From Thermoflexales bacterium (GTDB taxonomy: Bacteria > Chloroflexota > Anaerolineae > J036 > Brachytrichaceae), in NCBI GenBank assembly GCA_019694215.1, contig JAIBCK010000026.1:1-37429 (forward strand): a stretch of 37,429 bases of DNA, in the 5' to 3' direction. Below, one piece after another: positions 16,157-18,504 of this stretch. The position numbers and the translations under genes were made by a program. Each line of letters begins with the position of its first letter. Position 1 is the first letter of the stretch. The notes beneath the pieces are model-generated. The model did no database searches, was not told where the DNA came from, and worked only from the letters and a program-made list of their open reading frames with translations.

Positions 16157-17569
16157 ATGTGGACTTCGTATGCTGCACCCTCCTCCATCGACGACGCCCT
16201 CAACCTCCTCGCCGCCCAGGCTCCCAACGTGCGCCTCATCGCCGGTGGGACCGACCTTCTGATTGAGTTCGAGCTCGGCGTTCGCCCACCCTGTGGATTG
16301 ATCGACCTCTCGCGCGTGCCCGGCCTGAACGCCATTTCCATCGAACCCGATCGCATTCGAATCGGCGCGACAGTCACACACGCCGACATCGTGGCCGACC
16401 GCCGGCTGCGGGATTGCGCGGCTCCCCTGGTGCAGGCCTGTCGCCACATCGGCGCACCCCAGATTCGCAACCGCGCCACCGTCGCAGGCAACCTGGTCAC
16501 GGCCTCGCCGGCCAATGACACCATCCCCGCCCTGATCGCGCTGGATGCAAACGTCACGCTGCGCTCGGCCTCCGGCACGCGCACCCTGGCCCTGCGCGAC
16601 TTCTACCTCGGCGTGCGCAAGACCGTGCTCCGCCCGGATGAGATGGTGACGGGCATCGACTTCCGGCCCCTGCAGGGTGCCGCGGGCAAGGGCGCGGGTG
16701 AATACGGAGCGTTTGTCAAGCTGGGCTTGCGCGCCGCGCAGGCCATCTCCGTGGTCAGCGCGGCAGCCACCGTGCGCCTGGACGACCATGGGCGCGTGCT
16801 CTCGGCGCGCATTGCGCTGGGCGCCGTCACCCCGACCATCGTGCGGGTGCCGGCAGCCGAGGCCGCGCTGGTGGGCCACCCGCTGGACGACGCCCACCTC
16901 GCCGCGGCCGCTGAGCTGTGCCGCGCGACGGCCACCCCCATCACCGACGTGCGCGCCACGGCCGATTACCGCCGCGACATGACCGGCGTCATGGTGGTGC
17001 GCGCCCTGCGGGCCATCCGCGAGCGCGCTGCCCTGCGATCACCCGAGGTCGACGACGATCCCGCCTTGCTCTGGACGGCAGGGACGAGCAACGCCTCGGA
17101 CAGCACGCGCATCAACCACAACCCCGTCGACTTGGCCGGCGTCAGCGGCAAGAGTCTGTTGCGCGCCTTGCGGGAGGACGTTGGACTGACCGGCACCAAG
17201 GAGGGTTGCGGCGAGGGCGAGTGCGGCGCCTGCGCGGTGCTGCTGGATGGCCGCGTCGTCAACAGCTGCCTCGTCCCGGTCGAGCGCGCGCGCGGCGCCG
17301 ACATCGTCACCATCGAAGGCGTCGCCGCCCTCGCGGAGCCAACCGCCGACGGCCTGCACCCGTTGCAGCGCGCCTTCATCGACGCCGGCGCGGCGCAATG
17401 CGGTTACTGCACCCCGGGCCTCATCGTCACCGGGGCCGCCCTGTTGAACGAGCGCGTCGAGGTGAGCAAGGACGTGATCAAGGAAGGCATCAGCGGCAAC
17501 CTCTGCCGCTGCACGGGGTACTACAAGATCATTGAAGCGTTCGAGAAGGCCGCCCGCCAGCTGGCCTGA
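16157..17569 (+). CDS. Fused FAD (CoxM-like) and 2Fe-2S (CoxS-like) subunit of a molybdenum hydroxylase
   Basis: 470 aa. Residues 1-170 are the FAD-binding domain (LIAGGTDLL at 27-35 and NRATVAGNLVTASPAND at 105-121). Residues about 185-290 are the C-terminal domain of the CO-dehydrogenase flavoprotein family. Residues about 315-470 are a two-cluster 2Fe-2S protein: C351, C356, C359 and C371 for the plant-type cluster, and C415, C418, C450 and C452 for the second. In the xanthine dehydrogenase/CO dehydrogenase family these pass electrons from the molybdopterin subunit to FAD. Here medium and small subunits are one chain in the order FAD then FeS, opposite to eukaryotic xanthine dehydrogenase. 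No large molybdopterin subunit is present in this window. Its TGA overlaps the ATG of era by one base. Confidence 0.9.
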   Translation: MWTSYAAPSSIDDALNLLAAQAPNVRLIAGGTDLLIEFELGVRPPCGLIDLSRVPGLNAISIEPDRIRIGATVTHADIVADRRLRDCAAPLVQACRHIGAPQIRNRATVAGNLVTASPANDTIPALIALDANVTLRSASGTRTLALRDFYLGVRKTVLRPDEMVTGIDFRPLQGAAGKGAGEYGAFVKLGLRAAQAISVVSAAATVRLDDHGRVLSARIALGAVTPTIVRVPAAEAALVGHPLDDAHLAAAAELCRATATPITDVRATADYRRDMTGVMVVRALRAIRERAALRSPEVDDDPALLWTAGTSNASDSTRINHNPVDLAGVSGKSLLRALREDVGLTGTKEGCGEGECGACAVLLDGRVVNSCLVPVERARGADIVTIEGVAALAEPTADGLHPLQRAFIDAGAAQCGYCTPGLIVTGAALLNERVEVSKDVIKEGISGNLCRCTGYYKIIEAFEKAARQLA

Positions 17570-18504
17570 TGCCGACACCCATGACTGACTCCAGCGCAGA
17601 GACACAACCGCATCGCTCCGGCTACATCGCCGTCATCGGGAAGCCCAACGTCGGAAAGAGCACCTTGGTCAACGCGCTGGTGGGCCGCAAGGTGGCGATC
17701 GTCTCGCCCAAGCCACAGACCACGCGCCGACGCGTGCTGGGGGTGTTGACCCGCCCGGATGTGCAGGCGCTGTTCATGGATACGCCGGGGATTCACCAAC
17801 CCCGCGAGGCCCTCAACCGCTACATGATGCGCGAGGCCGACGCCGCGCTGGGGGATTGCGATGCGCTGCTGATCGTCGTCGATGCGAGCGCGCCACCGGC
17901 CGCCGCCGACGAGCACGTCTTCGCGCGCGTGGCGGATGCCCCGCAGCCCAAGTTTCTGGCGCTCAACAAAGCTGACAAGATCGACCCGCGCGAGCTGGTG
18001 GCCAACGTCGCCGCCTTCCACGCCCTGCTCGGTTCAGAGCGTTCGATGCTGACCAGCGGCACGCGCGGTGACAACCTGGAGAAGTTGCTCGAGATGGTGC
18101 TGGCCGCGTTGCCGGAAGGGCCGGCCTATTACCCGGCCGAGATGGCGACCGATCAGACCGAGCGCATCATGGCGGCCGAGTTCATCCGCGAGCAGGCGCT
18201 GCTCAATCTGGAGGAGGAAGTCCCCCACGCCGTCGCGGTTGCCATCGAGGAGTGGGAGCCACGCCGGACGGGCGGGCTCTACATCGCGGCGACGATCTTC
18301 ATCGAGCGCGCCTCGCAGAAAGGCATTCTGATCGGCAAGGGCGGGGCCATGCTCAAGAAGATCGGCGCCGGGGCCCGCAAGGCCATCGCGGCGGAGACCG
18401 GGGCGAGCGTCTTCCTTGAGCTGTGGGTCAAGGTGCGCGACAAGTGGCGCGCCGACGAGGGCTGGATCGAACGGGTGGTCGGCCTCGACGGTGGCGCGGG
18501 CTAG
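17569..18504 (+). CDS. era: GTPase Era
   Basis: 311 aa. G domain: G1 GKPNVGKS (24-31), switch I PQTTRRR, G3 DTPG (71-74) and G4 NKAD (133-136). The C-terminal KH RNA-binding domain has GILIGKGGAMLKKIG. Era binds the 3' end of 16S rRNA and helps mature the 30S subunit. The first ATG overlaps the stop of the preceding fused hydroxylase subunit (TGATG), so the two are co-translated. A second ATG at 17581 is also possible, because the first 16 residues are not conserved. The stop codon TAG at 18502-18504 overlaps the stop of the opposite-strand glycosyltransferase in the palindrome CTAG. Confidence 0.95.
   Translation: MPTPMTDSSAETQPHRSGYIAVIGKPNVGKSTLVNALVGRKVAIVSPKPQTTRRRVLGVLTRPDVQALFMDTPGIHQPREALNRYMMREADAALGDCDALLIVVDASAPPAAADEHVFARVADAPQPKFLALNKADKIDPRELVANVAAFHALLGSERSMLTSGTRGDNLEKLLEMVLAALPEGPAYYPAEMATDQTERIMAAEFIREQALLNLEEEVPHAVAVAIEEWEPRRTGGLYIAATIFIERASQKGILIGKGGAMLKKIGAGARKAIAAETGASVFLELWVKVRDKWRADEGWIERVVGLDGGAG

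What the first reader, a model, noticed from the sequence alone, without database searches (positions are those of the whole stretch)
16157..17569. Fused FAD plus 2Fe-2S hydroxylase subunit without a molybdopterin subunit nearby
CoxM-like and CoxS-like parts are in one chain in the order FAD then FeS, with all eight cluster cysteines. The catalytic large subunit is absent from the window and the gene is co-translated with era (TGATG). Either the large subunit sits elsewhere or this is an electron-transfer protein in its own right.
Basis: partly seen in the sequence, partly recalled or inferred. Interest (0 to 1): 0.6.

Follow-up and report, generated by a model that had tools for sequence, protein, structure and literature searches.

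The report
Split purine hydroxylase with fused subunit
The gene encodes the electron-carrying half of an ordinary xanthine-dehydrogenase-type molybdenum enzyme; its likely catalytic half is on another contig of the same genome, and this family of Chloroflexota keeps the electron-carrying half next to the housekeeping gene era instead of beside its partner.

Summary
Window 16157-17569 encodes one 470-aa chain, FAD domain then [2Fe-2S] domain, with all eight cluster cysteines, overlapping era by one base. The "no catalytic subunit" puzzle is largely solved. The genome has four molybdenum large subunits. Three carry or adjoin their own FeS part. The fourth, on contig C178 (731-aa open frame), lacks one, and the window gene is the only FeS part without a Mo partner. 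In other families of the class (Anaerolineae by GenBank titles) the same fusion is followed by an ortholog of that C178 subunit: 44 of 55 loci. In the window's own family the two are separated, and 25 of 26 fused genes sit just upstream of era. Fused gene and large subunit co-occur and co-diverge beyond what era explains. The large subunit keeps xanthine-dehydrogenase residues (Glu/Arg/Glu in 36 of 36), and related operons sit with yqeB, ssnA and a luciferase-family gene. Best reading: the FAD/FeS half of a purine (xanthine/hypoxanthine) dehydrogenase assembled from two separately encoded chains. The FAD-then-FeS fusion is class-wide (about 139 of 249 genomes), so this is a lineage-specific variant of a known enzyme, not a stand-alone electron carrier. 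Substrate and complex are inferred, not assayed.

The parts
16157..17569 (+). Fused FAD + [2Fe-2S] subunit (470 aa) of a xanthine-dehydrogenase-type molybdenum hydroxylase
   Evidence: AlphaFold model pTM 0.87
16157..17032 (+). FAD domain, residues 1-292 (CoxM/XdhB-like: FAD_binding_5 + CO_deh_flav_C)
   Evidence: Pfam; CutM 1ffu_C Z 33.3, 283 residues
17033..17098 (+). Inter-domain linker, about residues 293-314, variable in length and sequence among homologs
   Evidence: alignment; lower pLDDT around residues 290-320
17099..17566 (+). [2Fe-2S] domain, residues 315-470 (CoxS/XdhC-like), eight invariant Cys at 351, 356, 359, 371, 415, 418, 450, 452
   Evidence: Pfam; alignment; CODH small subunit 1n63_A Z 22.4
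17569..18504 (+). era GTPase, one-base overlap with the fused gene; neighbour kept in 25 of 26 fused loci of the family, not thought to be part of the enzyme

Best explanation
The gene encodes the electron-transfer half (FAD plus two [2Fe-2S] clusters in one chain) of a two-chain xanthine-dehydrogenase-type molybdenum hydroxylase. Its catalytic half is the separately encoded Mo subunit on contig C178 (G000:C178:25-2193). Substrate hydroxylation at Mo (most likely of xanthine, hypoxanthine or a related purine) would send two electrons through the FeS clusters to FAD and on to a soluble acceptor. In most other Anaerolineae families the two genes form an operon, often near purine/urate degradation genes; in the window's family the fused gene is separated from its partner and sits immediately upstream of era. 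Shown: the domains, the gene bookkeeping, the operon in relatives, the conserved era linkage, co-occurrence. Inferred: physical pairing, substrate, acceptor, direction of the rearrangement, co-transcription with era.
For: Gene bookkeeping in G000: Mo subunits on C5, C79, C112, C178; FeS domains on C5, C79, C112, C52; FAD domains on C5, C79, C52, C68. C5 and C112 are FeS-Mo fusions and C79 has FAD, FeS and Mo together, so only C178 lacks an FeS part and only the window gene lacks a Mo part. Outside the family, an L_C178 ortholog follows the fusion on the same strand in 44 of 55 loci, 37 within 1.5 kb. GenBank MAG loci agree: 13 of the 15 Anaerolineae-type single-frame fusions have it downstream; of the other two, one is a family member followed by era and one lies at a contig end. 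In the family, 26 of 28 genomes have the fused gene and 26 of 28 an L ortholog; the four absences are all in incomplete MAGs (67-87%). Distances of fused and L correlate (r 0.83; partial r 0.52 given era, 0 of 2000 permutations). L aligns Glu802, Arg880 and Glu1261 of bovine xanthine oxidase, kept in 36 of 36 orthologs. It lacks the Glu equivalent to E. coli XdhD Glu606 and has the XdhA-type Arg. Neighbours in relatives include yqeB, ssnA, luciferase-family, 8-oxoguanine deaminase and ygeY; the same genome has yqeB, XdhC, 8-oxoguanine deaminase, SsnA and selD.
Against: Pairing is by elimination and comparative genomics only; no complex was modelled or assayed. Contig C178 begins 24 bases upstream of the L start, so its upstream neighbour is unseen. 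No curated equivalog model passes its cut-off for either chain (pucD 559 bits against 784; TIGR02963 321 against 467), so the substrate is not certain. In the window's family L usually has no purine genes directly beside it; an amidase follows it in 10 genomes. The window's fused protein has diverged faster than its sister lineage's (55% against 64% mean identity within the family, while era is 62% against 60%), which could mean altered function.
Confidence: 0.8

Rival explanations
1. Stand-alone electron-transfer protein: the fused FAD/FeS chain works without a molybdenum subunit, shuttling electrons between a pyridine nucleotide and a ferredoxin-like partner, perhaps linked to Era-dependent physiology.
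For: It is encoded next to era in 25 of 26 genomes of the family and away from any Mo subunit; it evolves somewhat faster in the window's genome.
Against: An otherwise partnerless Mo subunit exists in the same genome; the two genes form an operon in most other families and co-occur and co-diverge in this family.
Confidence: 0.06
2. Same two-chain enzyme, but acting reductively on urate (urate to 2,8-dioxopurine, as E. coli XdhD-YgfM) or on another N-heterocycle, rather than oxidising xanthine or hypoxanthine.
For: Related operons lie near SsnA and luciferase-family genes that PMC12507026 assigns to reductive urate breakdown in Chloroflexota.
Against: L lacks the Glu606 of XdhD and keeps the XdhA-type Arg, whereas C5 and C112 have a Glu aligned with Glu606 and the XdhD-like FeS-Mo architecture. 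That alignment region is gappy, so this is weak evidence.
Confidence: 0.25
3. Aerobic CO dehydrogenase (CoxMS fusion).
For: The FAD part is structurally closest to CutM/CoxM (Z 33).
Against: The candidate large subunit lacks the CoxL AYXCSFR motif (sequence) and scores far lower on CoxL models (208-250 bits) than on pucD (559 bits).
Confidence: 0.02

Closest known systems
Rhodobacter capsulatus xanthine dehydrogenase (XdhA FeS-FAD chain + XdhB Mo chain; PDB 1jro)
   Same: Two-chain layout: one chain with FeS clusters and FAD, one with Mo; best PDB match of the fused chain by sequence.
   Different: Domain order is reversed (FAD then FeS here, FeS then FAD in R. capsulatus), and here the two genes are on separate contigs.
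PucC/PucE/PucD-type and XdhABC three-subunit xanthine dehydrogenases
   Same: Same three functional parts; the C178 large subunit scores best against pucD.
   Different: FAD and FeS parts are separate genes there and one gene here; no equivalog cut-off is met.
E. coli XdhD-YgfM and the reductive uricolytic gene cluster (PMC12507026)
   Same: Some related Anaerolineae operons sit with SsnA, YgeY, YqeB and the luciferase-family gene that the paper reports for Chloroflexota.
   Different: XdhD is an FeS-Mo fusion with a separate FAD subunit; here FeS is fused to FAD and the Mo subunit is alone, without the Glu606 equivalent.
Aerobic CO dehydrogenase CoxMSL / CutMSL
   Same: Fold of the FAD and FeS parts.
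   Different: No CoxL motif in the partner; subunits not fused in CODH.

Membership tests
Xanthine oxidase (molybdenum hydroxylase) family, FAD and FeS subunits | FAD_binding_5 + CO_deh_flav_C domain | tested here: met
   (164 and 87 bits, above cut-off); fold
Xanthine oxidase (molybdenum hydroxylase) family, FAD and FeS subunits | Two [2Fe-2S] clusters, eight Cys in CX4CX2CXnC and CX2CXnCXC pattern | tested here: met
   eight invariant Cys
Xanthine oxidase (molybdenum hydroxylase) family, FAD and FeS subunits | Functions with a Mo subunit | tested here: inconclusive
   candidate partner by elimination and by operon in relatives; no physical evidence
Xanthine dehydrogenase | Active-site Glu802/Arg880/Glu1261 (bovine numbering) in the Mo subunit | tested here: met
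   (36 of 36 orthologs)
Xanthine dehydrogenase | Curated equivalog score (NCBIfam) | tested here: not met
   pucD 559/784 bits; TIGR02963 321/467
Xanthine dehydrogenase | Hydroxylation of xanthine or hypoxanthine | not testable with these tools
   needs an assay
Aerobic CO dehydrogenase (form I CoxL) | AYXCSFR motif in the large subunit | tested here: not met
   the C178 sequence holds no such motif and reads GAFRGFG in the corresponding loop
Selenium-dependent molybdenum hydroxylases | yqeB (TIGR03309) and selD in the genome | tested here: met
   yqeB within the examined flank in 17 of 55 related loci. That this particular enzyme carries Se is untested.

The most novel reading that the evidence does not exclude
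In one Anaerolineae family the electron-transfer half of a purine hydroxylase was captured by the era transcription unit and has stayed there, so that production of this half is tied to the housekeeping and growth state while the catalytic half is controlled elsewhere; it may serve more than one Mo subunit.
Probability: 0.15. Interest if true: 0.5.

Novelty: new variant of a known kind. Interest (0 to 1): 0.27.

Why it matters
It accounts for an apparently orphan FAD/FeS gene, gives the Anaerolineae FAD-FeS fusion family a likely catalytic partner and a likely purine-catabolic role, and shows that gene neighbourhood alone can mislead annotation when one half of a heteromeric enzyme sits next to a housekeeping gene.

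Tried and rejected
Stand-alone carrier: rejected as main reading because of the C178 subunit and the operon in relatives. CO dehydrogenase: rejected on motif and model scores. Chance, frame or assembly artefact of the fusion: rejected, since the fusion is one open frame in about 139 of 249 class genomes (the three genomes matched only through frames with stops were left out). Literature searches for this FAD-then-FeS fusion found no description in the held library. The plasmid collection holds only separate FAD and FeS genes among the best hits, at about 43% identity or less. The sequential structure aligner cannot test whether the two domains take the XdhA arrangement in permuted order. An ORF clustering of neighbourhoods gave some antisense clusters (16, 31) that were ignored.

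Full report
Observation. The reading frame 16157-17569 (+) gives 470 aa. Pfam places FAD_binding_5 at 4-168, CO_deh_flav_C at 188-286, Fer2 at 321-371 and Fer2_2 at 385-462. All eight cluster cysteines are present and invariant in 28 homologs. The stop codon overlaps the era start by one base. An AlphaFold model from 17 sequences has mean pLDDT 86 and pTM 0.87; residues 1-292 match CutM/CoxM (Z 33) and 315-470 match the CODH small subunit (Z 22).

Partner in the same genome. The genome (G000, 3.4 Mb, 96% complete, window = contig C52) has four MoCoBD subunits, on C5, C79, C112 and C178; four Fer2_2 domains, on C5, C79, C112 and C52; and four FAD_binding_5 domains, on C52, C79, C5 and C68. C5 and C112 are FeS-Mo fusions, and C79 carries FAD, FeS and Mo together. 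That leaves the C178 subunit (731-aa open frame, 723 aa from its ATG, at the very start of its contig) as the only Mo subunit without an FeS part, and the window gene as the only FeS part without a Mo subunit.

Relatives. In 60 related genomes the fusion is found full length at 46-59% identity in most, and an ortholog of the C178 subunit in most. tblastn of neighbourhoods shows two arrangements. In the window's family (f1) the fused gene is followed on the same strand by era in 25 of 26 genomes; the exception, G009, has a fused-L operon inside a purine gene cluster. Outside the family the fused gene is followed on the same strand by the C178-type subunit in 44 of 55 loci (37 within 1.5 kb). 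era lies near only one of these, on the same strand but upstream (L082). A scan of GTDB-species contigs gives the same picture: the single-frame FAD-then-FeS fusions at 45% identity or more come from records titled Anaerolineae, Anaerolineales, Longilinea, Chloroflexi/Chloroflexota or Caldilineaceae (plus one titled WPS-2), most with the large subunit downstream. Nearly all loci from other phyla have separate FAD and FeS genes, with one 40% fusion in a Myxococcota record and two in the opposite order. Across 249 genomes of the class, 142 have a hit at E <= 1e-90, about 139 of them as an unbroken frame. So the fusion is class-wide and the era linkage is specific to the window's family.

Co-evolution. 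In 23 family genomes with all three genes, tree distances of fused and L correlate at r = 0.83, and at partial r = 0.52 once era distances are removed (0 of 2000 permutations as high). This supports a shared constraint, but tip permutation does not fully remove phylogenetic structure.

What the enzyme does. The C178 subunit scores best on pucD (559 bits, cut-off 784) among NCBIfam models. Against bovine xanthine oxidase it aligns Glu802, Arg880 and Glu1261 (residue numbering from general knowledge of that enzyme), and these three are kept in 36 of 36 orthologs. Aligned with E. coli XdhA and XdhD it has the XdhA-type Arg where XdhD has Gln, and Ala at the position of XdhD Glu606; the genome's C5 and C112 subunits have Glu there. 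PMC12507026 assigns Glu606 a putative role in urate reduction by XdhD and reports that Chloroflexota ssnA clusters contain a luciferase-family gene. The related fused-L loci carry yqeB (17 of 55), the luciferase-family gene (10), a C5-type XDH (8) and ssnA (3) in the examined flanks; G009 also has 8-oxoguanine deaminase, YgeY and an ABC transporter of the sugar/nucleoside type. The window's own genome has yqeB, two XdhC-type proteins, 8-oxoguanine deaminase, SsnA and selD, elsewhere than the window. The best reading is an oxidative xanthine/hypoxanthine dehydrogenase of a purine-degrading pathway; the reductive alternative cannot be excluded.

How it works (inferred). Purine binds at the Mo site of the C178 chain; two electrons pass through the two [2Fe-2S] clusters to FAD in the window chain and on to a soluble acceptor. 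Fusing FAD and FeS in one chain fixes their stoichiometry, as in R. capsulatus XdhA, but in the opposite order. Maturation by XdhC/YqeB is likely and selenium at the Mo site possible. Co-transcription of the fused gene with era is plausible from the overlap but untested; in relatives the gap is larger.

Conclusion. The finding is real but mostly ordinary: a class-wide subunit fusion whose catalytic gene lies apart in one family. The less usual aspects are the reversed domain order, the lasting era linkage and the probable assignment of a partner to a large family of fused proteins.

Noticed in passing
G000:C112:74000-77100 (locus L041:10001-13033) and G000:C68:27725-28228 (L226): A second scattered enzyme: the 1010-aa FeS-Mo fusion on C112 was found with no FAD gene on its contig, and the genome's only other spare FAD_binding_5 gene is on C68.
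   Followed up: partly
G000:C60:29799-30731 (L268): selD homolog with one in-frame TGA, probably a selenocysteine codon, so this organism likely uses selenium.
   Followed up: no
L077 (G009:C73:53500-72500): Compact purine cluster in a member of the same family: SsnA, luciferase-family gene, sugar/nucleoside-type ABC genes, fused FAD-FeS, Mo subunit, YgeY, 8-oxoguanine deaminase, plus a C5-type XDH.
   Followed up: partly
window 16157-17569: The window's fused protein is more divergent than its sister's (55% against 64% mean identity within the family) although era is not (62% against 60%).
   Followed up: partly
L113, L115, L116, L120, L123, L127, L128 and others: In the window's family the separated Mo subunit is followed by an AtzE-like amidase in 10 genomes, with an inosine-uridine nucleoside hydrolase nearby in some.
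   Followed up: partly
L044, L045, L046, L048, L052, L053, L054, L057: A LarA-like (Lar_N) gene lies directly upstream of the fused gene on the same strand in eight genomes of the family.
   Followed up: no
L148:4965-6377: A distant FAD-then-FeS fusion (40% identity) in a Myxococcota record, followed by a Mo subunit of only 30% identity: perhaps an independent fusion.
   Followed up: no
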